A stretch of 63,856 nt of DNA from positions 1 through 63,856 of the forward strand of contig JAICKA010000009.1 of NCBI GenBank assembly GCA_025928185.1, written 5' to 3'. The position numbers were made by a program, and so were the translations under genes. Under the pieces are notes generated by a model. The model worked only from the letters and a program-made list of their open reading frames with translations. It searched no databases and was not told the origin of the DNA. Below, piece by piece: positions 4,920 to 58,054 of this stretch (the first letter of the stretch is position 1; every line of letters begins with the position of its first letter). Source of the DNA: Gemmatimonadaceae bacterium (GTDB taxonomy: Bacteria > Gemmatimonadota > Gemmatimonadetes > Gemmatimonadales > Gemmatimonadaceae).

Positions 4920-5411
4920 ATGCCCATCGTTCCCTTCGGTTCATTGCCGGATTCCGCGCGCGTGTGGGTGTTCGCGAGCGATCATCCGCTTACCGGTGCG
5001 GCCGCGGACACGCTGCTTGCGGCCGTCGATTCCTTTCTCGCCGCGTGGAAGGCGCACGGCGTACCGCTCCGCTGCGCGCGCGACTGGCGCGATGGCCGTT
5101 TTCTCGCCGTTGGTGTGGACGTGGATGTCGAGAACGCGTCCGGGTGCTCGATCGATGGATTGTTTCATCGCCTGCAGCAGCTCGAGCGCGAGATCGGCAC
5201 GCGCCTCGTCGGTGGCGGCCGCGTGTTCTACCGCAGCCCGTCGGGCATCGAGACCGCGTCGCGCGAGGAGTTCGTGCAGCGCGTCGCCAACGGCGATGTC
5301 GTGAGCGAGACGCCGGTGTTCGACACGGGCGTTACGGCGGCAGCTCGCTGGCGCACGGCCTTCGAGCAGCCTGCGTCGCAGGGGTGGACGGCGTCGTTCT
5401 TTCGCGGATGA
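4920..5411 (+). CDS. Conserved hypothetical protein (often mis-named 'ABC transporter ATPase')
   Basis: A 163-aa soluble protein with no Walker motifs. The pattern ARVWVFASDHPLTG, then AAWKAHGVPL, then DVDVENASGCSIDGLFHRLQQLE matches a small conserved family in which the invariant ASGCSID segment is the best landmark. The function is unknown. The ATG at 4920 is preferred because it starts directly with the conserved region; an upstream in-frame start at 4851 would run through the divergent promoter gap. The last codons and stop lie inside a GGTGGAAC-type tandem array. It is transcribed divergently from the amidase gene. Confidence 0.75.
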   Translation: MPIVPFGSLPDSARVWVFASDHPLTGAAADTLLAAVDSFLAAWKAHGVPLRCARDWRDGRFLAVGVDVDVENASGCSIDGLFHRLQQLEREIGTRLVGGGRVFYRSPSGIETASREEFVQRVANGDVVSETPVFDTGVTAAARWRTAFEQPASQGWTASFFRG

Positions 5412-5437
5412 ACGGTGGAACGGAGGAACGGTGGAAG
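5406..5437 (+). repeat. 8-bp tandem array (GGNNGAAC units), overlapping a stop codon
   Basis: Four consecutive 8-mers are seen: GGATGAAC, GGTGGAAC, GGAGGAAC, GGTGGAAG. The TGA stop of the preceding gene (5409-5411) lies within the first unit. The same unit recurs at about 49.5 kb and 58.0 kb, where an inverted counterpart is present; none is found here. Confidence 0.8.
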
Positions 5438-5465
5438 GCTGAGAGCTCTGCCATCTCGCATCTCA

Positions 5466-6506
5466 TCAACTCTCTCCCCTCTCCCCTCCCCCCTCTCCCC
5501 TCTGCAGTTCGGGATAACTCCGCATCACGCGCGTAATCTCCTCCGCCTGTCCGGGTGAGAGCGTTTCGTTCTCGTCCAGACACCAGATGCCGTCGAGCAA
5601 TCCCTGACGTCGTAGCACCTCGTGAATGCCGGGAATGCAGCCGGCAAACGCGTGCGTTGCGTCGAAGATCGCCGCATTCGCGTCGGTGAGCGCTGCGCCG
5701 AGCGAAAGGAGTGACGCCGGCAGCCGGCCCGTGCCCCGTGCCGACTTGATTTCAGCGAGCATCGCCACGGCGGTACGCGTCCACATCGCCCACTGTCCGA
5801 GCAGTCCGCCATCGATCCAGCGCACCACTGTGCCGCCTCGGGCGTGGATGGGGAAGGGCGTGAGCAGGTCCGCGACGATGTTGTCGTCGTTGCCCGTGTA
5901 CAACGCGATGTCGTCGCGTCCCGCCTCGACGACGGCGCGCACGACATCGATCGTCTGATAGCGATTGAACGGCGCGATCTTGATCGCCCAGACGTTCGGA
6001 ATCTCGGCGAATTCGCGCCAGAACGCGTGCGACAAAACGCGACCGCCGACCGCCGGCTGGAGGTAGAAGCCGAACAGCGGAATGACGGTCGCGATCTCGC
6101 GGCAGTGCGCGAGCAACGCGTCCTCCGCTTCAATCCGCCAGTCGCCGAGGCTCAGGAGGGCGGCGTCATAGCCGATGGTCGCCGCGGTATCCGCCTCGGC
6201 CAGCGCCTGCGCCGTGTGGCCGCAAATGCCGGCGATCATCGCCACGGGCCGTTCCGACGCATTAGAGAATGCTGATCTCGCCTCGTCGATCGCCAGCTCG
6301 AGCACGGGACGATACAGCCCGATCGAGGGCGACCGGATGGCGAACTGGGTGGTGTGCACGCCGACCGCCAATCCGCCGGCGCCGGCGGCGAGGTAGTATC
6401 GCGTCAGCGCGCGTTGGCGCGACTCGTCGAGCGTGCGCCTGGCCGTGAGGGCGAGCGGGTGTGCCGGGATGACCTGTCCGGCTCGGAGATGCTCGCGAGC
6501 GTTCAT
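5466..6506 (-). CDS. Dihydrodipicolinate synthase / N-acetylneuraminate lyase family aldolase
   Basis: A 346-aa (beta/alpha)8 lyase-like protein of the DapA/NanA superfamily. The Schiff-base lysine is probably the Lys in VWAIKIAPFNRY, and the tyrosine in PLFGFYLQPAVGG sits at the expected distance before it. AGAGGLAVGVHTTQ corresponds to the usual glycine-rich substrate loop. It is longer and more divergent than true DapA, so another 2-oxo-acid substrate is likely. The start at 6506 (MNAREHL) begins the conserved region. It is the last gene of an operon with an atypical SDR. Its last dozen residues (Gly/Glu/Arg-rich) are encoded by a CTCTCCC tandem array. Confidence 0.85.
   Translation of the reverse strand: MNAREHLRAGQVIPAHPLALTARRTLDESRQRALTRYYLAAGAGGLAVGVHTTQFAIRSPSIGLYRPVLELAIDEARSAFSNASERPVAMIAGICGHTAQALAEADTAATIGYDAALLSLGDWRIEAEDALLAHCREIATVIPLFGFYLQPAVGGRVLSHAFWREFAEIPNVWAIKIAPFNRYQTIDVVRAVVEAGRDDIALYTGNDDNIVADLLTPFPIHARGGTVVRWIDGGLLGQWAMWTRTAVAMLAEIKSARGTGRLPASLLSLGAALTDANAAIFDATHAFAGCIPGIHEVLRRQGLLDGIWCLDENETLSPGQAEEITRVMRSYPELQRGEGGGERGES
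5472..5499. repeat. 7-bp tandem array (CTCTCCC units) inside a C-terminal coding end
   Basis: Units CTCTCCC, CTCTCCC, CTCCCCC, CTCTCCC occupy this stretch and a partial CTCTGCA follows. It encodes the Gly/Glu/Arg tail of the lyase-like protein on the minus strand. A related GAGAGGG array lies after msrP. Confidence 0.75.
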
Positions 6507-6628
6507 GGCACGGGTCGACCGGTAACGTGAGGGTGGCGGACGAACGCGGGCATCGACGGAGAATCGCCCGGTGTCCGCCGTGGCGCAACGTCGGGGCGTG
6601 CTGTGTCTCGGCCGGGTTTGCGGACAAT

Positions 6629-7660
6629 TCAGAAGCGGCCGTCGCGGGCCTCGAACCGCGTCGGCTTGCCGAGGAGTGAACCGCCCTGCTCGATCCAGTC
6701 TGCGACGCGGTCGAGCATGTCGTCGAGCGGCATCTCCGGCGCGGCGAAGGTCGCGCGCATGCGGCTCGTATCGCTCAGCAGCGCGTCCTCCCGTTCGGCG
6801 CCGCTGAATCGCGCGGTCATGCCAAAGCGCTCGCCGAATGCCGCCGCGAGCGCGCGCACGGACAAACGCTCCGCACCGGTGACGTTGACGATGAACGGCG
6901 GCGCTGACGCGTGCGGCAGACACTCGAGCGCGATGCGGTTCGCATCGCCCTGCCAGATGACGTTCACGTAGCCCATCTCCAACGGAATCGGTTCGCCGGT
7001 CCGCACGCGCAACGCGAGATCGACGAGGACGCCGTAGCGCAGGTCGATCGCGTAGTTGAGCCGCACGATGGCCACGCGCGTGCCGCGTCGCTCGGCGTAG
7101 AGCTCGAATACGCGCTCGCGCCCGAGACACGACGCGGCGTACTCGCCGACGGGCGAGGGCGCATCCTCCTCGCGCGAGCCGTGCGACGAGGCCGGCGTGA
7201 GCGCGTAGACGTTTCCGGTCGAGAACGCGACGATGCGCGCGTCGGCGTACCGTTCGGCGCAATGCGCGGGCACGATGACGTTCATGCCCCACGTCATCGC
7301 CGGCGCGCCCGTCGTACCGAACTTCTGGCCGGCCATGAAGATCACGTTCGGCAGGACCGGCAGTCGCGAGACGGCGGCCGAGTCGAGCAGATCGCACCGG
7401 ATCGTCTCCACGCCGGCATCGTTGAGTGCGCGTTCGGCCGTGCTGGAGGACCAACGCGACACGGCGATCACACGCCGGTCGGGAGCGGCGCGCGCCGCCA
7501 TGCGCGCGAGGGTGGGCCCCATCTTGCCGCCCGCTCCGAGGACGATGATGTCGCCGGCGCAGTGGGCGAGTGCTGTGGCGGTCTCGGGGCGCGGCGTCGA
7601 CAGAAGGTCGTCGAGCTGCGATTCGGTCAGCGACGACTCAGCCGGCGTGCGCGCGCGCAT
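6629..7660 (-). CDS. Atypical NAD(P)-dependent epimerase/dehydratase (extended SDR-like)
   Basis: A 343-aa Rossmann-fold protein. The nucleotide-binding motif is VLGAGGKMGPTLARMA, near residue 50. AFSTGNVYAL corresponds to the SDR beta-strand with the catalytic Ser/Thr. At the usual YxxxK site the sequence reads AASCLGRERVFE, so the catalytic tyrosine and lysine are not in their classical form. RLNYAIDLRYGVLVDLA is a well-conserved later block. The gene starts inside sufE (23-bp overlap) and is followed after 122 bp by the DapA-like lyase, suggesting that the two enzymes act in one catabolic route on an unknown sugar-acid or similar compound. No substrate is claimed. Confidence 0.83.
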   Translation of the reverse strand: MRARTPAESSLTESQLDDLLSTPRPETATALAHCAGDIIVLGAGGKMGPTLARMAARAAPDRRVIAVSRWSSSTAERALNDAGVETIRCDLLDSAAVSRLPVLPNVIFMAGQKFGTTGAPAMTWGMNVIVPAHCAERYADARIVAFSTGNVYALTPASSHGSREEDAPSPVGEYAASCLGRERVFELYAERRGTRVAIVRLNYAIDLRYGVLVDLALRVRTGEPIPLEMGYVNVIWQGDANRIALECLPHASAPPFIVNVTGAERLSVRALAAAFGERFGMTARFSGAEREDALLSDTSRMRATFAAPEMPLDDMLDRVADWIEQGGSLLGKPTRFEARDGRF

Positions 7661-8084
7661 AACGCTTGATGCGGTTGACCATTGCGTTGAGGCCGACTTC
7701 GCGACCCGACAGCCCGATGCCTTCCATGAGCTGCTGGACGAAGTCGTCGGGAATCGCGAGGGTGGTCGCGGGCGGCTGATCGTTGATCGCCGAAAAGAGA
7801 ATCGCGAGAAAGGCGGCGATTGTCGGGGATTGTCTGACGTTCAGGTCGGCGTAGAAGTGCAGCGTCCCGTCGTGTCTTTCCGGAAACAAGTCGACGCGGG
7901 TCTGACATTCGGGCACTTCGAATGCGGCGCGGTCCAGTTCCCGCAGACGATCCGGCAACGGTTCGAGCTTCTTGGAGTAGTGCACCAGAGCCTGCATCTT
8001 TTCCTCGCGTCCCATCGCCCGAAAGCGCGACAGCACGCGACTGATGCTCGGCGGAAGCTGGTCCGGGGTCGTCGACTGGCTCAT
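7638..8084 (-). CDS. sufE: SufE-family Fe-S cluster assembly sulfur acceptor
   Basis: A 148-aa SufE-like protein that accepts persulfide sulfur from a cysteine desulfurase for Fe-S cluster assembly. The acceptor cysteine is Cys60 in VPECQTRVDLF, followed by HFYADLNVRQSPTIAAFLAI, the typical SufE core. Length is normal for the family. No sufS or sufBCD is adjacent; instead it overlaps the downstream atypical SDR gene. It is transcribed divergently from the osmC-like gene across 114 bp, which must contain both promoters. Confidence 0.9.
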   Translation of the reverse strand: MSQSTTPDQLPPSISRVLSRFRAMGREEKMQALVHYSKKLEPLPDRLRELDRAAFEVPECQTRVDLFPERHDGTLHFYADLNVRQSPTIAAFLAILFSAINDQPPATTLAIPDDFVQQLMEGIGLSGREVGLNAMVNRIKRYARAHAG

Positions 8085-8198
8085 GTGGTCGGATTCAAGT
8101 GACGGTCGCGCGGAACGTCAAGGAACGCGCCGCACCCGCCACGAGCCGGCGGCGATGTTAGAGACGCGATGGTGAACTCAATTCCAAGGGAGCGGTAA

Positions 8199-8627
8199 AT
8201 GCCAACACGCAGTGCGAGCGCCACATGGGAAGGCGGACTGAAAAGCGGCCACGGCACGTTCCGCGGCAACACGGGGATCGGTGGCCAATTCAACTTCAGC
8301 TCGCGTTTCGAGTCGGGCGCGGGCTCGAATCCGGAGGAGCTCCTCGCCGCCGCGGAGGCCGCGTGTTTCAGCATGGCCCTGAGCGCGGGACTCGAACAGA
8401 ACGGCACGCCGCCCACCAGTGTGGAGACGACGGCTCGCTGCACAGTCGAGAAATCCGGCGACGGCTTCGCGATCACGAAGATGCAGCTCGACGTCCGCGC
8501 TCGCGTACCGAAGATGGACGATGCGACCTTTCAGCGGATCGCGGCGGCGACGAAGGACGGGTGTCCCGTGTCGAAAGCGCTCAAGGGCAACGTGCAACTG
8601 ACGCTGACCGCGACCCTCGCATCATGA
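8199..8627 (+). CDS. OsmC-family peroxiredoxin
   Basis: A 142-aa OsmC-type hydroperoxide reductase that detoxifies organic hydroperoxides using two redox cysteines. Cys56 (AAEAACFSMALS) and Cys122 (DGCPVSKALKG) are both present, as is the active-site stretch GSNPEELLAAAEAACF. The start is supported by a GGGAG ribosome-binding site a few bases upstream. The 3' end overlaps the convergent gene at 8622 by 6 bp, both stop codons being in the overlap. It is a monocistronic stress gene by context. Confidence 0.93.
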   Translation: MPTRSASATWEGGLKSGHGTFRGNTGIGGQFNFSSRFESGAGSNPEELLAAAEAACFSMALSAGLEQNGTPPTSVETTARCTVEKSGDGFAITKMQLDVRARVPKMDDATFQRIAAATKDGCPVSKALKGNVQLTLTATLAS

Positions 8628-8930
8628 GTCGCTGTAGTACTCCCTGATGCACATCGTCACCACCCGTTGCAGCAGGCGGACCTGATCCTCCGAATTGTCC
8701 ATGTCGCGAACCGCGGGCACCGAATACCAGATGTCCTTCAGGATGATGAGGAGCTGTTCGGGAAGAATTGCCCGCTCGTGCGCTTCGGCGGCGACCCGGT
8801 GCAAACTGATCCGCAGCGCGTCGCTCCCACCTGGCGAGTCGATGTACTGCACGAGCGCCGCGCTCAACTCGTCGATCGTTTCCTGGGCCAGGCCACGGGG
8901 GCCCGGTCTCGAATCATGCGCCATCATCAT
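8622..8930 (-). CDS. Hypothetical helical protein, 102 aa
   Basis: A small, mostly helical soluble protein with no recognised domain. It begins with three in-frame ATG codons (MMMAHDS), and the middle part contains AHERAILPEQLLIILKDIW, which looks like an amphipathic helix. No membrane segment or signal peptide is visible. It is convergent with osmC and divergent from the pseudo-receiver gene at 9084. The coding assignment rests on its position filling the gap and on its amino-acid composition. Confidence 0.6.
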   Translation of the reverse strand: MMMAHDSRPGPRGLAQETIDELSAALVQYIDSPGGSDALRISLHRVAAEAHERAILPEQLLIILKDIWYSVPAVRDMDNSEDQVRLLQRVVTMCIREYYSDS

Positions 8931-9083
8931 GCGGGAATCGCGCGGGCGTGCTGCGTTGAAAAGGAGGAACGGCTTGCGAGCGGAGTGGAGCGGCGTCGCT
9001 GCGGCGACGAATGTTTACCGTCAGGCGGCTCGCGTCAAGTGCGCAGGGCACGCGAGAATTGACGGTCGCCTCACACTGAACCG

Positions 9084-9443
9084 ATGACGGCCTCGGTCGT
9101 TCTCATTTTTTCTACTGACCCGCTCGCCGCCGCCCTCCTGGGTGCCGGCGTCGAGCTCGCGCGGGCGACGCCGGCGTTTCCGCGCGAACAGGAGAAGCCG
9201 CGCGACGCGCTCGTTCGAGTAAAGCCGCGGCTCGTCATGATCGACTGCGATCACGAAGACGCGTGCAGCGAAGCGCTGTTCGGGCCCGCGATGATGATCG
9301 GAGCCCGCATCGCCGTGTTCAGCTCCAGCCGGTCGCGACGGGCGCTGGAGCCGATCGCGCGTGAGTTCAACGTCGCCAGCTTCGGGCTGCCGGCTGACCT
9401 GAACGAGTTGGCGCGCTTGCTTCACGAGTGCGGCGTGACGTAG
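9084..9443 (+). CDS. Degenerate receiver-like protein, 119 aa
   Basis: A single-domain protein with the alternating strand/helix pattern of a response-regulator receiver: VVLIFSTDPLAAALL at strand 1, LVMIDCDHED at strand 3 and IAVFSSSRSR at strand 4. The acidic pair after strand 1 is absent. The usual Lys-Pro near the C terminus is replaced by SFGLPAD, so classical phosphorylation is doubtful. It may be a pseudo-receiver adaptor; no partner kinase gene is adjacent. A palindromic site and the cupin/SDR pair follow. Confidence 0.6.
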   Translation: MTASVVLIFSTDPLAAALLGAGVELARATPAFPREQEKPRDALVRVKPRLVMIDCDHEDACSEALFGPAMMIGARIAVFSSSRSRRALEPIAREFNVASFGLPADLNELARLLHECGVT

Positions 9444-9467
9444 GATACCGGGCCGGTGGCCGCGCGC

Positions 9468-9484
9468 CGCATCACGGTGATGCG
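9468..9484. promoter_or_regulatory. 17-bp palindrome upstream of the cupin gene, candidate operator
   Basis: CGCATCAC and GTGATGCG form a perfect 8-bp inverted repeat around one central base, 35 bp before the cupin start codon. Its size and position suit a dimeric repressor or activator, but no regulator is assigned and the function is inferred from symmetry only. Confidence 0.35.
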
Positions 9485-9519
9485 CGATGTGCCGCCGCTC
9501 CTCGTCCACACATCGCGAC

Positions 9520-9906: not shown

Positions 9907-9910
9907 CCGC

Positions 9911-15673: not shown

Positions 15674-16597
15674 ATGCTCATCAAAAAGCCCGGCGACATC
15701 CGGTCGTCGGAGATCACGGCAGAGCGCGATTACCTCAGCCGGCGGAAATTCATCGCCGCCGCGGGCGTGGCGACGCTCGGGCTGGCGGGTTCGGCGCGTC
15801 TGCTCGGCGCGCTCGGCTCGGCGACGGCCCAGGAGCAGCAGAACGAGAAGCCGAATACCTGGGACGAGATCACGACATACAACAACTACTATGAGTTCGG
15901 CACCGACAAGGACGACCCGTCGGCGAACTCGAAGAACTTCCGGACCCGGCCGTGGACGGTGAAGGTCGACGGGCTCGTCAAGAAGCCCGCCGAATACCAT
16001 TTCGAGGATCTGGTGAAGCCGTACGCCGAGCAGGACCGGGTGTACCGGTTCCGCTGCGTGGAAGCCTGGTCGATGGTGATTCCATGGCGCGGCATTCCGC
16101 TCGCCGAAATGATCAAGCGCTTCGAACCGCTGCCGAGCGCGAAGTTCGTGCAGTTCACGACCATCTATGCGCCCGCGGAGATGCCCGGCCAGCGCTCCGA
16201 CGTGCTGCAGTGGCCGTACGTGGAAGGGCTGCGGATGGACGAGGCGATGCACCCGCTCACGCTGATGGTCACGGGACTCTACGGAAAGACGCTGCCGAAC
16301 CAGAACGGCGCGCCGCTGCGGCTGATCGTGCCGTGGAAGTACGGCTTCAAGGGCATCAAGGCGATCACGCGCATCTCGTTCGTCGAGAAGCAGCCGCTGA
16401 ATACCTGGCAGATCGCGGCGTCAAACGAATACGGCTTCTACGCGAACGTGAATCCGAACGTGGACCATCCGCGCTGGACGCAGGCGAGCGAGCGGCGCAT
16501 CGGCCAGTTCCGTCGTCAGAAGACGCTGATGTTCAACGGGTACGCCGACCAGGTCGCGCACATGTACGCGGGGATGGATCTGCGGAGGAATTTCTGA
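15674..16597 (+). CDS. msrP: Periplasmic protein-methionine-sulfoxide reductase, molybdopterin catalytic subunit
   Basis: A 307-aa Tat-exported oxidoreductase of the YedY/MsrP family that repairs oxidised methionine in periplasmic proteins. The N-terminal signal is [19 protein letters not shown], typical of twin-arginine export of a folded Mo-cofactor enzyme. The molybdenum ligand is Cys128 in [15 protein letters not shown], and the conserved [14 protein letters not shown] and [21 protein letters not shown] segments are present. The gene for its haem membrane partner, msrQ, follows 100 bp downstream, so the electron route is quinone to MsrQ to MsrP. Confidence 0.96.
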
Positions 16598-16599
16598 TC

Positions 16600-16634
16600 G
16601 AGAGGCGAGAAGGGAGAGAGGAGAGGGGAGGAAC
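16600..16634 (+). repeat. 7-bp tandem array (GAGAGGG-type units) after msrP
   Basis: Five 7-mers in register are seen: GAGAGGC, GAGAAGG, GAGAGAG, GAGAGGG, GAGGAAC. The array starts two bases past the msrP stop and supplies several purine-rich Shine-Dalgarno-like tracts. The unit resembles the complement of the CTCTCCC array at 5.5 kb. Confidence 0.7.
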
Positions 16635-16697
16635 TACCGAGATGGCGGATGTGAAAGGCAAGTGAGCGAGGCATGAGTGAGTGAGTCGTCGGTTCAT

Positions 16698-18709: not shown

Positions 18710-18789
18710 GCTCGGCACATCCCTGCACCTCATCTCACCGCCGCAGCGCGGTGGTCCTCGATCTCGTACCCTCTCGTCAGGAGCTGACT

Positions 18790-24866
<6,077 letters not shown>

Positions 24867-24882
<16 letters not shown>

Positions 24883-43189: not shown

Positions 43190-43202
43190 TGAAAAACAGG
43201 TA

Positions 43203-43355
43203 CTAGATGCTAGGTGCTTGGTGCTGGTGGGTTGCTAGATGCTAGATGCTGGATGGCTCGGTGTGAGGTGCTGGTTCGGCGGTAACGAGCTTGTCCAAGC
43301 GGCTGATGGGTACGAGCGCCTAGCATCCAGTCTCCCGCTAGCACCTAGCCACTAG
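43203..43355. repeat. Inverted pair of 7-bp tandem arrays (CTAGRTG units)
   Basis: The left array (43203-43255) has units CTAGATG, CTAGGTG, CTTGGTG, CTGGTGG, a 4-base break, CTAGATG, CTAGATG, CTGGATG. The right array (43317-43355), read on the minus strand, has CTAGTGG, CTAGGTG, CTAGCGG, a 4-base break, CTGGATG, CTAGGCG. The permease stop codon TAG is part of the first minus-strand unit. About 60 bp separate the arrays. Confidence 0.85.
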
Positions 43356-44236
43356 TTACCAGCTTCTTTCCCCAATGCCGTCGGCGGGACTGCTCGCCCA
43401 ACCACGCCGGCCAGAGCGACGATCGTGAGCACGTATGGTATCATCTCGACGAACTGCGACGGGATGAGTTGGACACCCTGAAGCTGAATCTCGACGCTCT
43501 CGGCCGCCGCGAACAGCAGACAGGCGAGCGCCGCTCGATAGGGATCCCACCGGCCGAATATCGTTGCCGCCAGCGCGATGAAGCCGCGCCCCGCCGTCAT
43601 CTCGGCGCTGAACTGGTGCTGATCGAACACCAGATACGCGCCGCCGAGTGCGGCAAGCAGTCCGGAAAGCGCAGCGGAAAGATAGCGGACCCGCTCGACG
43701 CTGATTCCAACCGATGCCGCCGCTTCGGGATGCTCGCCCACCGCACGCACGCGAAGGCCGAACGGCGTGCGGTAGAGCACCCAGCCGATGATGAACACCG
43801 TAAGAATCCCGATCCAGATCAACGGATTCCCGGCCAGCGCGGCGAAGCCCGAGCCAGCTCGCTCCTCACCAAAGCTCGGTATGCGCGGCGAGTTCGCCGA
43901 GCTGTGAAACGCCAATCTGAGAAAGAACTCCGTTGCGCCGGTGACGAGCAGATTCACCGCGACGCCGACGACGACCTGATCGCCCCGGAACCGAATCGAC
44001 GCGACCGCATACAACAGCGCGAGTGCCACACCACCGGCCATTGCGCCGAGCAGGCCGATCCATGCACTGCCGCTGTAATAGCTGGCGAGTGCGCCGCAGA
44101 AGGCGCCGCCGAGCATGTATCCCTCGAGGCCGAGCCCGATGAGGCCCGACTTCTCCGTCATCACGCCGCCGGTGGCCGCGAAGAGATACGGAATGGCGAT
44201 GCGCAACGTCTGCGCGAGGAATGCGAGCACGATCAT
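43352..44236 (-). CDS. ABC transporter permease (BMP/nucleoside-type importer), second subunit
   Basis: A 294-aa membrane permease with about eight to nine hydrophobic helices, of the RbsC/YufQ-like BPD_transp_2 family. Landmarks are GLEGYMLGGAFCGALASYY, GDQVVVGVAVNLLVTG and YRTPFGLRVRAVGEHPEAA. The ATG overlaps the upstream permease stop (ATGA). It forms the second half of the membrane channel with the product of the 44233-45348 gene. The stop codon is embedded in the CTAG tandem array. Confidence 0.92.
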   Translation of the reverse strand: MIVLAFLAQTLRIAIPYLFAATGGVMTEKSGLIGLGLEGYMLGGAFCGALASYYSGSAWIGLLGAMAGGVALALLYAVASIRFRGDQVVVGVAVNLLVTGATEFFLRLAFHSSANSPRIPSFGEERAGSGFAALAGNPLIWIGILTVFIIGWVLYRTPFGLRVRAVGEHPEAAASVGISVERVRYLSAALSGLLAALGGAYLVFDQHQFSAEMTAGRGFIALAATIFGRWDPYRAALACLLFAAAESVEIQLQGVQLIPSQFVEMIPYVLTIVALAGVVGRAVPPTALGKEAGN

Positions 44237-47995: not shown

Positions 47996-49504
47996 ATGAC
48001 GGAGCGTATGCGGACGCGATTTCTCGTCGTGGGAAGCGGTGTGGCCGGCTTGCATACCGCGTGGCGCGCATCGCAGCACGGCGACGTGCTGCTCCTTACC
48101 AAACGCTCACTTTTCGACAGCGCCACGGCGTACGCGCAGGGCGGCATCGCCGCAGCGCTCGGCGCCGGTGACTCGCCGGCGCTGCACCGGCAGGATACGC
48201 TCGCCGCAGGTGCGGCCCTCTGCGACGCCGCCGCCGTCCAGGTGCTCGTCGAGGAAGGTCCGGCGCGTGTGCGCGAGCTGCAGACCGCCGGCGCACACTT
48301 CGATCTCGACCCGGCGGGCCGTCTGCTGCTCGGCCGCGAAGCGGCGCATTCGAAGAACCGGATCGTCCACGCGCATGGTGATCAGACGGGCGCGGAGGTG
48401 GCGCGCACGCTCGTCGCGCGCGTGCGGGATACGCCGGCCATTCGTGTGCTCGAGCGAGCCCGCGTGCTGGATCTCATCATGCGGCGTGGCGTGTGTGTCG
48501 GCGTTCGAGCGAGTCTTGGCGGTCGCGCGACGGATATCGTGGCCGACGCCACGGTGCTGGCCACGGGTGGCTGCGGACAGATTTATCGCTACACGACGAA
48601 TCCCGAGGTGGCCACCGGCGACGGGTACGCCATCGCACACCGCGCCGGGGTGCGCCTGGCGGACATGGAGTTCGTGCAGTTCCATCCCACCGCGCTGGCG
48701 ACGGCGGAGAACCCGCTCGCGCTCATTTCGGAAGCGGTGCGCGGCGAAGGGGCGGTTCTCGTGAATTCGCGCGGCGAGCGATTCATGGCCGCCAAGCATC
48801 GGCTCGCCGAGCTGGCGCCGCGCGATGTGGTCGCACGTGCCATCTTCCGCGAACAGCGGCATGGGCCGGTGTTCCTGGACGCGCGCATGCTCGGCGAGCG
48901 GTTCGCGGAGCGCTTTCCGGGCATCTTCGCGCTCTGTCGCGCTCGCGGCATCGATCCGCGCCGCGAGCTCATCCCGGTTACGCCGGCGGCGCATTACATG
49001 ATGGGTGGTATCGTCACCGATCTTCGCGGCCGCTCGAGCGCGACCCGGCTGTACGCTGTGGGAGAGGTGGCGCGCACCGGCGTGCACGGGGCGAATCGGC
49101 TCGCGTCGAATTCGCTGCTCGAAGGACTGGTGTTCGCCGAACGCGTCGCCCGCGACATGACGGGCGTAAAGCCGCTCGGCGAGGTGAAGCCGATGAAGTC
49201 GTGGACCGTGCCGCCGCTCGCCGATCGCGGCGCCGCGCAGGTGCTTGCCGACGCGATACGCTCGGTGATGTGGGACGATGCCGGCATTGCGCGAACGGCG
49301 CGCGGGTTGCGGGCGGCGCTGGAGCAGCTCGACGAAGTCGAGACGCGACTCACGCCCGGAATGACGGAAGAGCGCAACATGCTGGACACAGCGCGGCTCG
49401 TCGCGGAAGCCGCGCTCGTGCGGCGTGAATCGCGCGGCGGCCACTATCGAACGGACTACCCGCGTGCGAAGCGGAGCTGGGCGGGGAGACATATAGAACG
49501 GTAG
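47996..49504 (+). CDS. nadB: L-aspartate oxidase
   Basis: A 502-aa FAD enzyme that oxidises L-aspartate to iminoaspartate, the first step of quinolinate synthesis. FAD motif VVGSGVAGLHTAWRA, DSATAYAQGGIAAAL, VLATGGCGQIYRYTTNP, MEFVQFHPTAL, AAHYMMGGIVTD and GANRLASNSLLEGLVFAERV are all present and in order. Length fits NadB rather than succinate dehydrogenase. It starts the nadB-nadA-nadC operon. Its last residues and TAG stop lie within a GGTAGAAC/GGTGGAAC tandem array. Confidence 0.96.
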   Translation: MTERMRTRFLVVGSGVAGLHTAWRASQHGDVLLLTKRSLFDSATAYAQGGIAAALGAGDSPALHRQDTLAAGAALCDAAAVQVLVEEGPARVRELQTAGAHFDLDPAGRLLLGREAAHSKNRIVHAHGDQTGAEVARTLVARVRDTPAIRVLERARVLDLIMRRGVCVGVRASLGGRATDIVADATVLATGGCGQIYRYTTNPEVATGDGYAIAHRAGVRLADMEFVQFHPTALATAENPLALISEAVRGEGAVLVNSRGERFMAAKHRLAELAPRDVVARAIFREQRHGPVFLDARMLGERFAERFPGIFALCRARGIDPRRELIPVTPAAHYMMGGIVTDLRGRSSATRLYAVGEVARTGVHGANRLASNSLLEGLVFAERVARDMTGVKPLGEVKPMKSWTVPPLADRGAAQVLADAIRSVMWDDAGIARTARGLRAALEQLDEVETRLTPGMTEERNMLDTARLVAEAALVRRESRGGHYRTDYPRAKRSWAGRHIER

Positions 49505-49591
49505 AACGGTGGAACGGCGGAACGGATGAACGCGCGGGCACAGCAGTCTGAGTTCATCCGCATTTCCGTTCCACCGTTCCACCGCTCCACC
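49492..49591. repeat. Inverted pair of 8-bp tandem arrays (GGTGGAAC units) between nadB and nadA
   Basis: Left units are TATAGAAC, GGTAGAAC, GGTGGAAC, GGCGGAAC, GGATGAAC (49492-49531). Right units are GTTCATCC, GCATTTCC, GTTCCACC, GTTCCACC, GCTCCACC (49552-49591). The innermost units give a perfect 9-bp stem (49523-49531 with 49552-49560) and a 20-base loop. The nadB stop codon is inside the second left unit. The arrays fill nearly the whole gap. Confidence 0.9.
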
Positions 49592-49605
49592 GCTAGCTTT
49601 TCTTC

Positions 49606-52723: not shown

Positions 52724-53619
52724 CCGCTCATCTGACGGGCGAGCCGCTGCACGTCACCGGCCGTTATCTCTTGTTCGGCGAGTACCGCGCTCACCTGCGG
52801 GGATGCTGCCAGAATACCGAGCAAGAGATGCTGGGTGCCCAGCTGCGGGTCGCGGCCGTCACGCTGCGAGCGCCGCATTGCGTCGAGGGCGGCGACGAGA
52901 TCGGGCGCGAGCGTCATTGCCGCGTCCGACGACGTCTCGCCGGCGGCAATATCAGGCTTACCATTGAACGCTGCGAGTGCGCGCTCGCGGTCAATGCCAA
53001 GCCGGTCGAGCACGGCGTTGGCCATGCCCTCGCCGTGCGCGAGCAGCGCGGCGGCGGCGTCTTCGGCTGTCACTGAGGGTCTCCCGCACGACAGCGCTAC
53101 TCCGTGCGCCTGAGTGATGATGGCCCGTACGCGACCAGGCAGACGGGTCCAGGGAGTCGCCGGCCGGCCATCCGCTTCGCCGGATTCGCTGAGCCGCCGT
53201 GTTTCGTCGCGCGCCGCTTCCAGCGTGATGCCCGTGTCGGCAAGGACCTGCGCGGGCAACGACCCGCGCTGGTGAATGAGACCAAGCAGCAGATGCGCGG
53301 TTCCGACGGAGTCCTGCTCGAGCTGGCGGACCTCCGCCATGGCAAGCTCGATGACTTTCTTCGCGCGCGACGTGTACGGAAGATCCGAACGAAACGTTCG
53401 CTCCGTCCCGGGCGGCAGGAGCTGCTCGACTTCCGCTGCGAGCGTTTCCGGATCGATGCCGAGATTCCGGAGCACCGCGACTCCAGCCTCATCGCCGCCG
53501 CGGAGCAGCGAGAGCAGCATATGCTCCGGCGCGACGTGCGCGTGACGCAGTCGCTCGGCTTCGGTGCGCGCGTCTGCCAGCACCCGCCGCACCTGCTCGG
53601 TAAAGTTGAACCCGCGCAT
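52720..53619 (-). CDS. Stand-alone double Clp-N domain protein
   Basis: A 299-aa protein made only of Clp_N-type helical repeats, with no AAA+ module. The first pair (about 1-145) has EQVRRVLADARTEAERLRHAHVAPEHMLLSLL and GTAHLLLGLIHQRG. The second pair (about 155-295) has ITQAHGVALSCGRPSVTAEDAAAALL and LGTQHLLLGILAASPQ. Clp_N domains in ClpA/ClpC bind adaptors or substrates, so a free copy may act as adaptor, decoy or sensor for a Clp protease. The ATG shares one base with the stop of a zinc-ribbon gene upstream (TGATG). Confidence 0.85.
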   Translation of the reverse strand: MRGFNFTEQVRRVLADARTEAERLRHAHVAPEHMLLSLLRGGDEAGVAVLRNLGIDPETLAAEVEQLLPPGTERTFRSDLPYTSRAKKVIELAMAEVRQLEQDSVGTAHLLLGLIHQRGSLPAQVLADTGITLEAARDETRRLSESGEADGRPATPWTRLPGRVRAIITQAHGVALSCGRPSVTAEDAAAALLAHGEGMANAVLDRLGIDRERALAAFNGKPDIAAGETSSDAAMTLAPDLVAALDAMRRSQRDGRDPQLGTQHLLLGILAASPQVSAVLAEQEITAGDVQRLARQMSG

Positions 53620-53813
53620 CACAGGTCGGCGCAGCTCTTGTTGATCTGCCGGCAACTCGCGCATACCAGCTTGCACTTTCGCCATTCCAGCGTTGGTGCG
53701 CCGCAGTAGTCGCACGCCTCACGCGACTCGGCGATGGCGGGTGCGGACCCCTCCTCGGCGCGATCGATCACGACGCCTGGGCGGATGAACGGCTGCGTGT
53801 GACAGGGCGGCAT
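53619..53813 (-). CDS. Small zinc-ribbon protein, 64 aa
   Basis: The C-terminal half carries CDYCGAPTLEWRKCKLVCASC, two C-x2-C pairs (ACDYCG and VCASC) plus Cys residues in RKCK and SCADL, which fits a conserved small zinc-binding family (the KSCADL ending is typical). The N-terminal part is acidic and likely flexible. It is translationally coupled to the double Clp-N gene. The zinc-finger plus Clp-N arrangement recalls McsA next to ClpC, but sequence homology to McsA cannot be claimed. It is divergent from the RNB gene across 90 bp. Confidence 0.75.
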   Translation of the reverse strand: MPPCHTQPFIRPGVVIDRAEEGSAPAIAESREACDYCGAPTLEWRKCKLVCASCRQINKSCADL

Positions 53814-53903
53814 GCATCACAATGGCGCGGCCGGCGAGAAACGCAAGATCCTCCGGCGGCCCGGACCATGCGAGATTACTGACGACTCCAGACCAGGACT
53901 GAC

Positions 53904-55412
53904 ATGAGCAAGGGCCACGCGTCGCACGGCGGTAATTCCCATTCCCACTCCGGCCACGGGCACAACGATGGCCACTTCGACATGCACGCAGCCGTGCGCC
54001 GGATCCTCGCTGCGGCGCAATTCGAGCCCCGACTCGATTCGGCGGCCGAGCAGCAGCTCGACCAGCTCACCGCGCCGGCTCCGATGCCTCCAGGTGTGAA
54101 GGACCTGCGAGCGCTTGCCTGGTCCTCGATCGACAACCAGGAGTCGCGCGATCTCGATCAGGTGGAAGTGGCCGAGCAACTGCCGGACGGATCGATCAAG
54201 CTGACCGTCGGCATCGCCGACGTCGACGCGCTCGTGCCAAAGGGATCGCCGATCGACGAGCACGCGTACGCGAACTGCACGTCGGTGTACACCGGCGTCG
54301 AGGTGTTCCCGATGCTGCCGGAGAAGCTGTCGACCGGCCTGACCTCGCTGAACGAGAACGAGGACCGCCTGGCGATTGCGATCGAGACGGTGGTCGACGC
54401 GACCGGCAACGTGACGGCGTTCGATGTGTATCGCGCGACGGTGCGGAACGGAGCGCAGCTCGCGTATGACGAGGTCGGCGCCTGGCTGGACGGCGAGGCT
54501 CCCCCGGCGAAGGTCGCGGGCAACAACGCGTTGAGCGAGCAGCTCAAGCTCCAGCACGAAGCATCGAAGCGGCTCAAGGCCGAACGGGTGCGGAACGGCG
54601 CGCTCGAGCTGGACACGATCGAGGCGACGCCGGTGGCGAAGGACGGCCGCATCGTCGACCTCGCGGTGGTGCGCAAGGGCAAGGCGCGTGATCTGATCGA
54701 GGATTTCATGATCGCCAGCAACGTCGCGATCGCGAAGTTTCTCGAGGCGAAAGGGCGCTCGGGGATCCGCCGCGTCGTGCGTGAGCCGGAGCGGTGGGGC
54801 CGCATCGTCGAGCTGGCGGCGCGCTACGGTGAGACGCTGCCCGCCGAACCCGATTCGCTCGCGCTGGCGGAGTTTCTGATCAAGCGACGGGATGCGGCGC
54901 CGGATGTATTTCCAGATCTCTCGTTGACGATCGTGAAGCTGATGGGCCCCGGCATCTATGCCCTCGATCTACCCGGCAAGGATCCCGGCGGTCACTTCGG
55001 GCTGGCCACGCACGACTATTCCCACGCGACGGCGCCGAACCGGCGCTACGCCGATCTCGTGACGCAGCGCCTCGTCAAGGCGACGCTGGCGAACGCGCCG
55101 GCGCCGTACACGAACGACGAGCTGACGGAAGTCGCGGCGCGCTGCACCGAGCGCGAGGACGCCGAGAACAAGGTGGAGCGAAGGGTGCGCAAAACCGCGG
55201 CGGCTGTGCTGCTGAGTGACCGCATCGGGCAGGTGTTCGACGCAATCGTCACCGGTGCGAATGAGAAGGGCACGTTCGTGCGCACGCTGCATCCGCCGGC
55301 CGAAGGCATGGTCGTGCGCAACCATGCCGGCTTCGACGTCGGCGACAAGGTGAAGGTGAAGCTGGTCGGCGCGGACCCCTGGAAGGGCTTCATCGATTTC
55401 GAAGGAGTGTAG
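53904..55412 (+). CDS. RNB-domain exoribonuclease (RNase II/R family) with His-rich N terminus
   Basis: A 502-aa 3'-5' exoribonuclease-like protein. The first 27 residues are extremely His/Gly/Ser-rich (ten His). No cold-shock domains precede the RNB core (about 60-400). The catalytic Asp cluster reads SIDNQESRDLDQVE, so three of the four metal-binding Asp are kept and the fourth is Gln. The conserved THDYSHATAPNRRYADLVTQ is intact. A short S1-like domain (about 430-502) ends the protein. Some RNB relatives share the DLDQ form, so activity is plausible but not proven. Confidence 0.88.
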   Translation: MSKGHASHGGNSHSHSGHGHNDGHFDMHAAVRRILAAAQFEPRLDSAAEQQLDQLTAPAPMPPGVKDLRALAWSSIDNQESRDLDQVEVAEQLPDGSIKLTVGIADVDALVPKGSPIDEHAYANCTSVYTGVEVFPMLPEKLSTGLTSLNENEDRLAIAIETVVDATGNVTAFDVYRATVRNGAQLAYDEVGAWLDGEAPPAKVAGNNALSEQLKLQHEASKRLKAERVRNGALELDTIEATPVAKDGRIVDLAVVRKGKARDLIEDFMIASNVAIAKFLEAKGRSGIRRVVREPERWGRIVELAARYGETLPAEPDSLALAEFLIKRRDAAPDVFPDLSLTIVKLMGPGIYALDLPGKDPGGHFGLATHDYSHATAPNRRYADLVTQRLVKATLANAPAPYTNDELTEVAARCTEREDAENKVERRVRKTAAAVLLSDRIGQVFDAIVTGANEKGTFVRTLHPPAEGMVVRNHAGFDVGDKVKVKLVGADPWKGFIDFEGV

Positions 55413-55421
55413 TAGCGGCTC

Positions 55422-57014
55422 TCAACCCGCCGGCTCGCGCCACTCCACGCCGTCCCGCTCGATCAGCTCGTCCGCCTCGCGCGGGCCCCAACTGCCCGCG
55501 GCGTACGTCGGCATTCGTTTCGGCTTGTGCGCGTCCCAGTACTGGATCAGCGGATCGATCACGCGCCACGCGGCTTCTACTTCGTCGCTGCGGGTGAACA
55601 GCGTCGCTTCGCCGATCATCACGTCGAGCAGCAGCGTCTCGTAGGCCGGTGCTGCCACTTCGCCGAATGCCTCGGCGTAGGTGAAGTCCATGTCCACCGG
55701 CGCGATCTCGATCGCGGAGGTCAGCGCCACCGCCGCGCCGGGCACCTTCACCTCGAAGTTCAACGACACGCCCTCGTTCGGCTGCACGCGCATGACGAGG
55801 GTGTTCGGACGCATTGCGCCCTGCGGCTGGCCACCGAACATCAGGTGCGGCGGTGTGCGAAACTGCACGGCGATTTCCGACACGCGGTGCTTGAGCCGCT
55901 TGCCCGAGCGCAGATAGAACGGCACGCCGGTCCAGCGCCAGTTGTCGATGTACAACCGCACCGCGGCGAACGTCGGCACCGTCGAGTCGGGTGCGACATC
56001 CTTCTCCTGCGTATAGCCCGGAACGTGCTTGCCGGCCATCGCGCCTGGCGTGTACTGCGCGCGCACGGCGTTCTGCGGGATCGTCTCCGGCGTCATCCAG
56101 CGCACCGATTTGAGCACCTTCACCTTCTCGTCGCGCACCGCGTTCGCGGTCATCACCGGCGGCGGTTCCATGGCCGTCAATGAGAGAAGCTGCATGAGGT
56201 GATTCTGAAACATGTCGCGGACGACACCGGCCTCCTCGTAGTACCGCCCACGCTCCTCGACGCCGACGCTCTCCGCCGCGGTGATCTGCACGTGATGGAT
56301 CGACTGCCGGTTCCAGATCGGCTCGAAGATCGAGTTGGCGAATCGCAGCACCAGCACGTTCTGGACGGTCTCCTTGCCCAGGTAGTGGTCGATGCGATAC
56401 GTCTGATGTTCGGCGAACAGCCCGAGCACCAGATCGTTCAGCTGTTGCGCCGTTTCCAGGCTGCGGCCGAACGGCTTCTCGATCACGACGCGCACCCACG
56501 GCCGCGCGTCCGCGGTCCGCGTGCGCGGCGCCAGGCCGCTCTGCGAGAGATTCCTCACGATCGCCTCGAACACGCTCGGCGGCACCGCGAGATAGAACAG
56601 CCGGTTGCGCTGCTCTTCCGGCCGGTCGGCCTCGATCTGCTTCAGCCGCTCGCCGATCCGCTGATAGTCTTCCGCGCAGGTCAGATCTGCCGAGCAGTAG
56701 AACAACCGCTTGCAGAGCTCCTCCCACAGATCGGCGTCGACGTCCTCGATCTCGTCCGACGAGCCGAGCGCTTTGCGCATCTCGGTTCGGAACGTGTCGT
56801 CGGTCTGGCCGTCCTCACGGCTCACGCCGAGGACGCGGAACGAGTCGGCGACGAGGTGCTCCTTCATCAACGAGTAGATCGCCGGCAACAGCTTGCGCCG
56901 ACTGAGGTCGCCGAGCGCGCCGAAGATCACGAGCGTGCAGGGATCGGCGCGTCGGACGTTCGGCGACTGCACCTGCGTCGCCGGTCGCGCCGAAATCACG
57001 GTCCCACCAGTCAT
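55422..57014 (-). CDS. zwf: Glucose-6-phosphate 1-dehydrogenase
   Basis: A 530-aa NADP-dependent enzyme that oxidises glucose-6-phosphate to 6-phosphogluconolactone and feeds the oxidative pentose phosphate pathway. NADP motif LVIFGALGDLSRRKLLPAIY near residue 28, active-site signature YRIDHYLGKETVQNVL and KPFGRSLETAQQLN are complete. The ATG overlaps the gnd stop by 4 bp, so the two pathway enzymes are translated together. The 3' end is convergent with the RNB gene. Confidence 0.97.
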   Translation of the reverse strand: MTGGTVISARPATQVQSPNVRRADPCTLVIFGALGDLSRRKLLPAIYSLMKEHLVADSFRVLGVSREDGQTDDTFRTEMRKALGSSDEIEDVDADLWEELCKRLFYCSADLTCAEDYQRIGERLKQIEADRPEEQRNRLFYLAVPPSVFEAIVRNLSQSGLAPRTRTADARPWVRVVIEKPFGRSLETAQQLNDLVLGLFAEHQTYRIDHYLGKETVQNVLVLRFANSIFEPIWNRQSIHHVQITAAESVGVEERGRYYEEAGVVRDMFQNHLMQLLSLTAMEPPPVMTANAVRDEKVKVLKSVRWMTPETIPQNAVRAQYTPGAMAGKHVPGYTQEKDVAPDSTVPTFAAVRLYIDNWRWTGVPFYLRSGKRLKHRVSEIAVQFRTPPHLMFGGQPQGAMRPNTLVMRVQPNEGVSLNFEVKVPGAAVALTSAIEIAPVDMDFTYAEAFGEVAAPAYETLLLDVMIGEATLFTRSDEVEAAWRVIDPLIQYWDAHKPKRMPTYAAGSWGPREADELIERDGVEWREPAG

Positions 57015-57913
57015 GAGTGCTTCACCGCGTGTCCACCGAACTCATTCCGCAGCGCGGCGATGACCTTGGCGCCGAACGAATCGGGTTGCCGCGAGCGGAA
57101 GCGCGTGAGCAGCGACAGCGTGATCACCGGCGCCGGCACGTCGAGGTCGATGGCTTCCTGCACCGTCCACCGACCCTCGCCCGAGTCGGCGACCCAGCCC
57201 TTGAGCGCCGACAGCGACGCGTCGCGCGAGAACGCGGTGACGGCGAGCTCGTTGAGCCACGATCGCACGACGCTGCCGTGCTGCCACACCTCCGAGATCT
57301 GCTCGAGGTCCAGTTTCGGGAAGATCTTCGACGCATGCAGAATCTCGTAACCCTCCGCGTAGGCCTGCAGCAGGCCGTACTCGATGCCGTTGTGCACCAT
57401 CTTCACGTAGTGGCCGGATCCCGTGGGACCGACGTGGGCGTAGCCCTTCTCGGGTGCAAGCGCGGTGAAGATCGGCTCGCAGCGCTTCACCGCGGCGTCG
57501 CTGCCGCCGACCATGAGACAATAGCCGTTCTCGAGTCCCCAGATTCCGCCGCTCGTGCCGCAGTCGATGTACTCGATCTTCGACTCCGCGAGCTGTTTGC
57601 CGCGACGAATCGTGTCGTGAAAGTTCGAGTTGCCGCCGTCGATGATGATGTCGCCCGCCTTCAGCATCGGCGTGAGCGTCGCGATGGTCTGATCGACCGG
57701 ATCGCCTGCCGGCACCATGATCCAGACGATCCGCGGCGACGGGAGACCCGCGACCACTTTTGCCAGATCATCGGCACCGGTCGCCCCCATGCCGGCGTAC
57801 TTCGCCACGGCCTCGGCGCTGCGATCGAACACGACGAGCTTGTGCCCGTGCCGCATGAGGCGTTCGACCATGTTGCCGCCCATGCGGCCGAGTCCAATCA
57901 TCGCAAGTTGCAT
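57011..57913 (-). CDS. gnd: 6-phosphogluconate dehydrogenase, short (YqeC/GntZ-like) type
   Basis: A 300-aa oxidative decarboxylase giving ribulose-5-phosphate. It is the short bacterial form (classical Gnd is about 470 aa). The nucleotide motif MQLAMIGLGRMGGNMVERL is at the N terminus, IIDGGNSNFHDTIRRG and KMVHNGIEYGLLQAYAEGYEIL form the active site. The ATG at 57913 begins exactly at the Rossmann motif; an in-frame extension to 57988 would be encoded by the GGTGGAAC array and is not accepted. It precedes zwf in the operon. Confidence 0.96.
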   Translation of the reverse strand: MQLAMIGLGRMGGNMVERLMRHGHKLVVFDRSAEAVAKYAGMGATGADDLAKVVAGLPSPRIVWIMVPAGDPVDQTIATLTPMLKAGDIIIDGGNSNFHDTIRRGKQLAESKIEYIDCGTSGGIWGLENGYCLMVGGSDAAVKRCEPIFTALAPEKGYAHVGPTGSGHYVKMVHNGIEYGLLQAYAEGYEILHASKIFPKLDLEQISEVWQHGSVVRSWLNELAVTAFSRDASLSALKGWVADSGEGRWTVQEAIDLDVPAPVITLSLLTRFRSRQPDSFGAKVIAALRNEFGGHAVKHS

Positions 57914-57931
57914 TTCAGAGATCCTAAAAAG

Positions 57932-58054
57932 GGTGGAACGGTGGAACGGTGGAACGGTGGAACGGTGGAACGGTGGAACGGCTGACAACTGAGAACTGAG
58001 AACTGACGTCTCGGTAGTTCGCGTTCAGCCGTTCCACCGTTCATCCGTTCATCC
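57932..58054. repeat. Inverted pair of 8-bp tandem arrays (GGTGGAAC units) between the HAD gene and gnd
   Basis: Six perfect GGTGGAAC copies (57932-57979) face four reverse units GTTCAGCC, GTTCCACC, GTTCATCC, GTTCATCC (58023-58054). GGTGGAACGGCTGA (57972-57985) and its exact complement (58025-58038) form a 14-bp stem. The spacer holds three 7-bp AACTGAG/AACTGAC units (57987-58007). The right array touches the HAD gene stop codon (58056-58058). Confidence 0.92.

What the first reader, a model, noticed from the sequence alone, without database searches (positions are those of the whole stretch)
5406..58054. Family of stop-codon-anchored short tandem arrays, often paired as inverted copies
Five separate junctions (about 5.4, 16.6, 43.2, 49.5 and 58.0 kb) carry arrays of 7- or 8-bp units. 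The units differ (GGTGGAAC, CTAGRTG, GAGAGGG/CTCTCCC, AACTGAG) but the design is shared: the array starts at, inside or within two bases of a stop codon, and in three of five cases is mirrored by an inverted array so the RNA could fold. No coding role explains the non-coding copies. 7-bp units containing TAG or TGA also place stops in all three frames. They could be 3'-end modules: terminators, mRNA stabilisers or read-through barriers.
Basis: partly seen in the sequence, partly recalled or inferred. Interest (0 to 1): 0.72.

Follow-up and report, generated by a model that had tools for sequence, protein, structure and literature searches.

The report
Mirror-image short repeats between bacterial genes
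A little-known bacterium and its relatives carry short repeats between genes set as mirror images, with letters that mostly differ from lineage to lineage but the same layout, which makes a poorly understood kind of bacterial repeat easier to test.

Summary
In 827 kb of the window's genome (22% of 3.71 Mb), 471 gaps hold 41 period-7 and 38 period-8 array rows against 0.03 of each in shuffles. Related-unit pairs in one gap are mostly inverted (17 of 22). An array edge lies within 2 bp of, or overlaps, a stop codon on 38 of 75 stop sides (uniform null 10.7).

Units mostly differ by lineage: GGTGGAAC doubled occurs 182 times here and 3 times in 77 relatives; another genus uses TTGGCTR (181 and 187 hits). 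One rule holds across units: the G-richer arm comes first (33 pairs, 0 reversed, 4 ambiguous), at divergent junctions too.

A general terminator role is weakly supported: no TTTT on 33 of 36 transcribed sides, though all three mirrored window pairs have one; 1 of 79 orthologous gap comparisons shares arrays. Closest known: Xanthomonas/Nostoc GGGAATC heptamers (PMC4692102), same layout. Verdict: new variant of a known kind, most likely lineage-specific spreading repeats tolerated at gene ends.

The parts
5410..5436 (+). GGTGGAAC-family array, 3.4 units; its start overlaps the TGA stop (5409-5411) of ORF 4920-5411
   Evidence: TRF; sequence; gene calls
5472..5503 (-). GAGAGGG array (CTCTCCC on +), codes the C-terminal tail of ORF 5466-6506 (DHDPS-like), C-rich arm facing the previous array
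   Evidence: TRF; translation of the tail; Pfam
16600..16630 (+). GAGAGGG array two bases after the stop (16595-16597) of the Oxidored_molyb gene; no inverted partner; fold z of the gap 0.38
16631..16638 (+). hinge motif GAACTACC
43198..43255 (+). CTAGRTG arrays (two TRF rows), 8 bp from the start codon of the minus-strand MFS gene; a TTTTT run follows on the minus strand
43318..43360 (-). inverted partner of the CTAGRTG array, overlaps the stop (43352-43354) of the minus-strand permease gene; edges read by eye
   Evidence: sequence; fold z of the gap -3.3; no TRF row
49496..49537 (+). GGTGGAAC-family array containing the nadB stop TAG 49502-49504
49566..49592 (-). inverted partner array upstream of nadA, followed by TTTT; fold z of the gap -5.4
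57932..57981 (+). GGTGGAAC array, 6.2 perfect units; TTTTT follows on the minus strand
57982..58006 (+). AACTGAG heptamer array inside the loop
58013..58020 (-). hinge motif GAACTACC (GGTAGTTC on +)
58022..58055 (-). inverted partner array abutting the stop of the minus-strand HAD gene; fold z of the gap -6.1

Best explanation
These are members of a lineage-specific family of intergenic palindromic repeats whose arms are made of short tandem units (7, 8 and 10 bp here). Shown: the same few units recur at many loci of one genome, most units are not found in relatives, pairs are inverted with the G-richer arm first, and most lie in gaps and not in coding DNA. Inferred: a small palindromic seed gains whole units on each arm by replication slippage or fold-back copying; ectopic copying between loci spreads and homogenises a unit within a lineage; copies in coding or start regions are purged, so survivors pile up against stop codons, the first position where they do little harm. 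Any effect on mRNA ends (a hairpin after the stop) is a by-product that may be kept at some genes, perhaps including the three mirrored window pairs. The fixed polarity is a property of how the elements arise in DNA, since it does not depend on the direction of transcription.
For: Unit sharing: GGTGGAAC doubled 182 times here, once each in 3 of 77 relatives; TTGGCTR pattern 181 and 187 in two species of one other genus, 3 and 2 in two order-level relatives, 0 in the other 74 of 78 genomes; unit table on held stretches. Far above chance: 41 and 38 rows against 0.03. Intergenic: 39 of 50 period-7 and 39 of 43 period-8 rows lie in the 7.4% of DNA between genes. Polarity: 33 G-first, 0 C-first, 4 ambiguous pairs. 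Polarity at all junction types: own genome 90 inward of 102, lone arrays 33 of 36. Place not conserved: both 1, one only 14, neither 64 of 79 orthologous gap comparisons. Arms of one locus are not more alike than arms of different loci (P 0.15 and 0.10), as separate expansion would give. Arrays of different units share a hinge, GAACTACC, in 11 of 66 array gaps against 1 of 392 others, which points to copying of blocks. The last nadB codons match the unit here but not in sisters.
Against: No agent of spread was found: RAYT-type transposase (PF01797) gives no match in the own genome; other agents were not searched. Slippage and ectopic copying are inferred; no population data were available. The sharp peak at stop codons (distances -2 to +4) exceeds the start-guard nulls and is not fully explained by purging. 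The 43.2-kb junction carries arrays of three different units in three of six genus members (by eye), which hints at site preference. Array gaps fold better than non-array gaps (median z -1.93 of 47 against -0.50 of 120, P 0.0013), and all three mirrored window pairs end in a T-run, as a functional hairpin would. Lone arrays of other genomes do not follow the inward rule (11 of 20). Not every unit is private: the own decamer GCGGAGAAC-N resembles the 9-mer CGCGGAGAN of Gemmatirosa. Three of 13 sampled family genomes had no period-7/8 row (G002, G009, G016).
Confidence: 0.55

Rival explanations
1. 3'-end modules: hairpins after the stop codon that stop read-through or protect mRNA 3' ends, working like REP/BIME elements or terminators on both strands.
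For: Stop anchoring in own genome, 38 of 75 stop sides against a null of 10.7. T-run after all three mirrored window pairs. Convergent gaps have the highest share with arrays: 16 of 70, against 43 of 318 same-direction and 10 of 83 divergent; in own genome alone not significant (P 0.065 and 0.087), pooled with relatives 29 of 173 against 65 of 677 (P 0.010) and 17 of 195 (P 0.026). Stronger RNA folds: own array gaps median z -1.93 (47 gaps), other genomes' array gaps -6.3 (29), own non-array control -0.50 (120). PMC8355165 has a section headed 'Presence of poly A/U trails is not necessary in genomes' (abstract and headings seen, section not read).
Against: No TTTT on 33 of 36 transcribed sides; 2 of 30 untranscribed sides have one. 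Same polarity at divergent gaps. Arrays inside neighbouring gene pairs. Two of five window array gaps have no fold (z -0.23 and 0.38), and 24 of 47 own array gaps have z above -2 while 32 of 120 controls have z below -2. Little sharing at orthologous gaps. No stop anchoring in Gemmatirosa.
Confidence: 0.28
2. G-quadruplex elements, as proposed for GGGAATC repeats of Xanthomonas and Nostoc: four G-tracts on the strand leaving the gene.
For: G-richer strand rule is the same as in PMC4692102 (sections 10, 13, 16 read). GGGAATC doubled occurs 6 times in 40 kb of relative G007.
Against: Units CTAGRTG, GGTCCRT, CTRGTGA, GGCTRTT and GGCATCA have no GGG run, and GGTGGAAC offers only two-G tracts; the layout is kept without three-layer quadruplex capacity (judged from the letters, not computed).
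Confidence: 0.08
3. Scars of DNA-end processing: breaks in gaps are resected to the gene edges, both 3' ends gain G-richer repeats as at a telomere, and the ends are joined.
For: Predicts G-first pairs and inward polarity at every junction type, independent arms, array edges at gene ends and little conservation of place.
Against: No enzyme or template was identified or searched; several units per genome would need several templates; telomere-like repeat addition at bacterial breaks is not something I know of (recalled, not searched).
Confidence: 0.07
4. Ordinary independent slippage at each locus (plain microsatellites).
For: Slippage of heptamers is discussed in PMC4692102 (section 16). Arms of one locus are not specially alike.
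Against: Independent slippage does not give the same 8-mer at many loci of one genome and almost none in 77 relatives, nor fixed polarity, nor the shared hinge.
Confidence: 0.05

Closest known systems
GGGAATC / GGGGA(C/T)T heptamer repeats of Xanthomonas and Nostoc (PMC4692102: abstract, sections 10, 13, 16 and passages read)
   Same: Mostly intergenic heptamer arrays with fixed and variable positions; 70 and 75 convergent (inverted) pairs in two Xanthomonas genomes, few in Nostoc; G-rich strand sense just after stops (overlapping them too) and antisense before starts; 5' gene edge nearer (28 against 160 nt); divergent gaps under-represented; function unknown.
   Different: One unit type studied per organism there, G4-forming, most often four copies. 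Here several 7-, 8- and 10-bp units per genome, units mostly replaced between lineages, many without GGG, a shared hinge, and strong anchoring at stops in one genome.
TAACTGA direct repeats of Beggiatoaceae (PMC4679880: abstract and passages read)
   Same: 170 mostly intergenic heptamer sets in one genome, some overlapping stops.
   Different: 169 direct and one inverted set, most placed just before start codons.
Cyanobacterial short tandemly repeated repetitive (STRR) heptamers (recalled; a passage of PMC4692102 mentions three tandem heptanucleotides in Calothrix)
   Same: Tandem heptamers, several units per genome.
   Different: Inverted layout and polarity were not checked there by me.
REP/BIME elements with RAYT transposases (PMC2817692, search listing with abstract start only; the rest recalled)
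   Same: Extragenic inverted repeats in many copies.
   Different: Units here are short tandems; no RAYT-type match in the own genome.

Membership tests
Xanthomonas/Nostoc-type G-rich heptamer repeats (Rehm 2015) | dispersed heptamer arrays over-represented between genes | tested here: met
   39 of 50 period-7 and 39 of 43 period-8 rows intergenic; chance 0.03 each
Xanthomonas/Nostoc-type G-rich heptamer repeats (Rehm 2015) | convergent pairs, G-rich strand first | tested here: met
   33 G-first, 0 C-first, 4 ambiguous pairs
Xanthomonas/Nostoc-type G-rich heptamer repeats (Rehm 2015) | G-rich strand sense after stops, antisense before starts | tested here: met
   own 51 of 60 (4 ties left out) and 39 of 42; others 25 of 34 (4 ties) and 20 of 23 (1 tie)
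Xanthomonas/Nostoc-type G-rich heptamer repeats (Rehm 2015) | unit GGGANTN with GGG tracts able to form G4 | tested here: not met
   GGGAATC doubled 0 times in 827 kb of the own genome; five of the six own units in the table lack GGG; G4 formation itself not computed
Intrinsic (Rho-independent) terminators | stable hairpin after the gene | tested here: inconclusive
   array gaps median z -1.93 against -0.50, but 24 of 47 have z above -2
Intrinsic (Rho-independent) terminators | U-tract after the hairpin | tested here: not met
   TTTT on 3 of 36 transcribed sides, background 1.6-2.2% of 16-mers; exception: all three mirrored window pairs
REP/BIME with RAYT | REP-associated tyrosine transposase in the genome | tested here: not met
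   PF01797 0 matches in own genome (90% complete), matches in 5 of 22 genomes
Rfam families | match to a described RNA family | tested here: not met
   0 matches in the window at gathering score
Any transcript-level function | mapped RNA 3' ends at arrays | not testable with these tools

The most novel reading that the evidence does not exclude
Each lineage of this family has its own short repeat 'dialect' that is written into gene gaps by a DNA-level process with telomere-like polarity (G-richer strand growing 5' to 3' away from the flanking gene on both sides, then joined), so the letters are arbitrary and replaceable while the layout is fixed; the GGGAATC repeats of Xanthomonas would be one dialect of the same process.
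Probability: 0.07. Interest if true: 0.9.

Novelty: new variant of a known kind. Interest (0 to 1): 0.52.

Why it matters
Heptamer repeats of this layout were described with one G-rich unit type each in Xanthomonas and Nostoc and discussed as G-quadruplex elements. Finding the same layout with many different units, several without GGG, separates layout from letters: polarity, not G4 capacity, is the common feature. The polarity does not follow transcription, so explanations should look at DNA synthesis or repair first. A finished cultured relative (Gemmatirosa kalamazoonensis) carries inverted arrays, so tests are possible.

Tried and rejected
Intrinsic terminators as a general account: TTTT on 3 of 36 transcribed sides. 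RAYT/REP spread: no PF01797 match in the own genome. Mirror-image matching of arm variants within a locus, which would show copying of one arm from the other or pair-wise constraint: not significant (P 0.15 with 8 loci, 0.10 with 6). Conserved place with changing letters: tempting at 43.2 kb (three of six genus members, by eye) but not borne out systematically (1 shared of 79 comparisons, Fisher P 0.57); power is low (about 0.8 shared expected by chance), one gap can count in several species pairs, and the held stretches overlapped little. Scan of named genomes for GGTGGAAC x3: 16 stretches with titles from many unrelated groups, one match each except three in L021; I did not look into them, and the tool says that records near the window's genome may be left out. 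The reversed-pattern control is void because GAGAGGG reverses into itself.

Caveats on counts: gene calls come from a simple hexamer-based caller of mine, so starts are uncertain; the other genomes were sampled at 40-100 kb each, and one search used 300 kb of Gemmatirosa plasmids. TRF limits differ: score 40; 32 with at least 2.4 copies (which feeds 36, 39-43, 45, 64, 65); 30 with at least 2.3 copies in 63. Pairs mean related units (up to 2 mismatches): 3 direct and 2 undecided of 22 in own genome, 2 direct of 18 in others, are not in the polarity count; one gap in G007 gives two of the pairs. Inward counts leave out arrays with equal G and C (own 4, others 5). The weakest class of the inward rule is same-direction gaps at stops (own 27 in, 8 out; others 13 in, 6 out). 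Fold controls are the first 120 non-array gaps of 50-300 bp. Arrays at orthologous junctions were judged by eye. Gene spacing is extrapolated from BLAST ends with the own start, which may lie too far upstream. Period 10 is also in excess in own gaps (19 rows against 0.23); 10 of these 19 share a gap with a 7/8 array, most are GCGGAGAAC-type, and by eye they too stand as G-first inverted pairs; they are in none of the counts above.
Full report
What is there. The five arrays of the finding were confirmed by Tandem Repeats Finder and by reading the sequence. An array edge meets a stop codon at all five junctions, and three junctions (43.2, 49.5, 58.0 kb) have an inverted partner of the same unit. 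Their gaps fold better than shuffles (z -3.3, -5.4, -6.1), while 5.4 and 16.6 kb do not (z -0.23 and 0.38). Dinucleotide shuffles of the window gaps gave no such array in 100 rounds.

Whose genome. The window is G000:C277:1-63856 of a 3.71-Mb draft genome in 288 contigs. No names are given for these genomes, but relative G020 has a contig of exactly 1,040,503 bases, the length of Gemmatirosa kalamazoonensis plasmid 2, and is placed in the window's family. I therefore take the family to be Gemmatimonadaceae (lineage); this is an inference from contig length.

Genome-wide. I held 827 kb of the own genome (41 pieces with the window). Gaps are 7.4% of it and hold 39 of 50 period-7 and 39 of 43 period-8 rows. 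Real gaps gave 41 and 38 rows, shuffled gaps 0.03 each; periods 5 and 6 gave none, 9 gave 3, 11 gave 2, and 10 gave 19 (shuffles 0.17, 0.43 and 0.23 for 9, 11 and 10). The decamers are mostly of a GCGGAGAAC type and, by eye, also stand in G-first inverted pairs. GGTGGAAC doubled occurs 95 + 87 times in the whole genome, the reversed control 0. Other units: GAGAGGG 38, CTAGRTG 7, AACTGAG 1; in the held stretches also CGCTGGAN and GGTCCRT.

Stop codons. Across 69 array-bearing gaps of the own genome the outer edge lies within 2 bp of, or overlaps, the stop on 38 of 75 stop sides, and near the start on 5 of 63 start sides. Random placement in the same gaps gives 10.7 (sd 2.1, maximum 20); barring 15 or 25 bp before starts gives 18.3 and 21.1. 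In the 13 other family genomes pooled it is 14 of 48 against 9.1 (P 0.006), 11.9 (P 0.13) or 13.6 (P 0.49) with the same bars. In 300 kb of Gemmatirosa plasmids it is 0 of 11. So the anchoring is strong in this genome and not a rule of the family.

Layout and polarity. In one gap, arrays of the same period and related unit are inverted in 17, direct in 3 and undecided in 2 cases in the own genome, and 16 inverted to 2 direct in the other genomes. Of the inverted pairs the G-richer arm comes first in 15 + 14, never second, 4 ambiguous; Gemmatirosa adds 4 of 4. Counted array by array, the G-richer strand runs from the nearest gene into the gap in 90 of 102 cases here and 45 of 57 elsewhere, with 11 of 13 at divergent junctions in both sets; lone arrays do so in 33 of 36 here but only 11 of 20 elsewhere. 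Gaps without arrays lean the other way after stops (52 G-rich, 14 tied, 82 C-rich). As divergent gaps have no gene 3' end, transcription termination cannot be the reason for the polarity.

Dialects. Of 78 genomes, GGTGGAAC doubled is found in the own genome and once each in three others. The heptamer TTGGCTR is found 181 and 187 times in the two held species of genus g7, 3 and 2 times in two order-level relatives and in none of the other 74. In sampled stretches 10 of 13 other family genomes had period-7/8 rows in gaps, G002, G009 and G016 had none at that limit, and the two order-level outgroups (60 kb each) had none. Units were mostly private: of 14 unit patterns on 17 sets of stretches the only strays were 1 GGTGGAAC hit in G020 and 2 CTRGTGA hits in G010. 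The own decamer resembles a Gemmatirosa 9-mer, so not every unit is private.

Composite build. GAACTACC, a non-tandem octamer, occurs in 11 of 66 array gaps and 1 of 392 other gaps; it follows both GAGAGGG and GGTGGAAC-type arms and is followed by CAG/GAG and CAGA-type heptads. This suggests copying of blocks, not only local slippage.

Orthologous junctions. Of 13 relatives whose locus held both nadB and nadA, an array is seen in one, G007 (unit GCGGATT, inverted); in 12 of the 13 the two genes lie within about 160 bp (by eye). At 43.2 kb three of six genus members have arrays of three different units; at 58.0 kb G005 has its own; at 16.6 kb two sisters have a quite different palindrome. Systematically, in 79 orthologous gap comparisons arrays were in both 1 time, in one 14 times and in neither 64 times (Fisher P 0.57). 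In 13 of 17 relatives with both hits the two genes flanking the 16.6-kb array have negative extrapolated spacing, so they are close-packed there, though the own start used for this may be too far upstream.

Tests of function. TTTT within 16 nt after the hairpin was found on 3 of 36 transcribed and 2 of 30 untranscribed sides. Two of the three are the window's 49.5 and 58.0 kb pairs; the 43.2 kb pair, outside that set because TRF missed its partner, has TTTTT too. So the window pairs do look like intrinsic terminators one by one, while the family as a whole does not. No Rfam family matches. No RAYT-type transposase match in the own genome. Arms of one locus are not more alike in variant than arms of different loci.

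Comparison with print. PMC4692102 (abstract, sections 10, 13 and 16, passages) describes in Xanthomonas and Nostoc heptamer arrays with the same intergenic place, strand rule and distance rule, inverted pairs in Xanthomonas (few in Nostoc), one unit type each and G4 formation in vitro, and leaves the function open. PMC4679880 (abstract, passages) describes TAACTGA arrays near starts. My searches listed no paper on such arrays in Gemmatimonadota; most subscription papers are not in that library.

Mechanism. I favour lineage-specific spreading palindromic repeats tolerated at gene ends (0.55). Shown are unit sharing, layout, polarity and little positional conservation; slippage, ectopic copying and purging are inferred.

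Noticed in passing
window 18751-24882 (repeat 19383-21853): A very long ORF (about 2040 aa) with nine 276-bp tandem repeats; looks like a histidine kinase with repeated HAMP-like units (name recalled, not searched).
   Followed up: no
L030:17348-17937, L035:13608-14494, L037:6091-6765: A longer intergenic repeat (a few hundred bases, GC-rich, begins with GGTCCRT heptamers, holds GCGGAGAAC decamers) recurs in at least three gaps of the own genome (by eye).
   Followed up: no
   Followed up: partly
L173, L191, L192 (same-genus junctions): Palindromes of the GTCATCCTGAG...CTCAGGATGAC type sit at junctions where the window has arrays.
   Followed up: partly
G054 (order-level relative): The reversed control of the TTGGCTR pattern gave 7 + 9 matches there, so that genome seems to have a GGTTRTC heptamer unit of its own.
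   Followed up: no
window 5466-6506: The array at 5472-5503 is read through as the tail QRGEGGGERGES of a predicted DHDPS-like ORF.
   Followed up: partly
L042:17349-17677 and L044:7970-8289: Arrays of different unit families stand side by side in one gap.
   Followed up: no
G020:C4: Contig length points to Gemmatirosa kalamazoonensis plasmid 2.
   Followed up: yes
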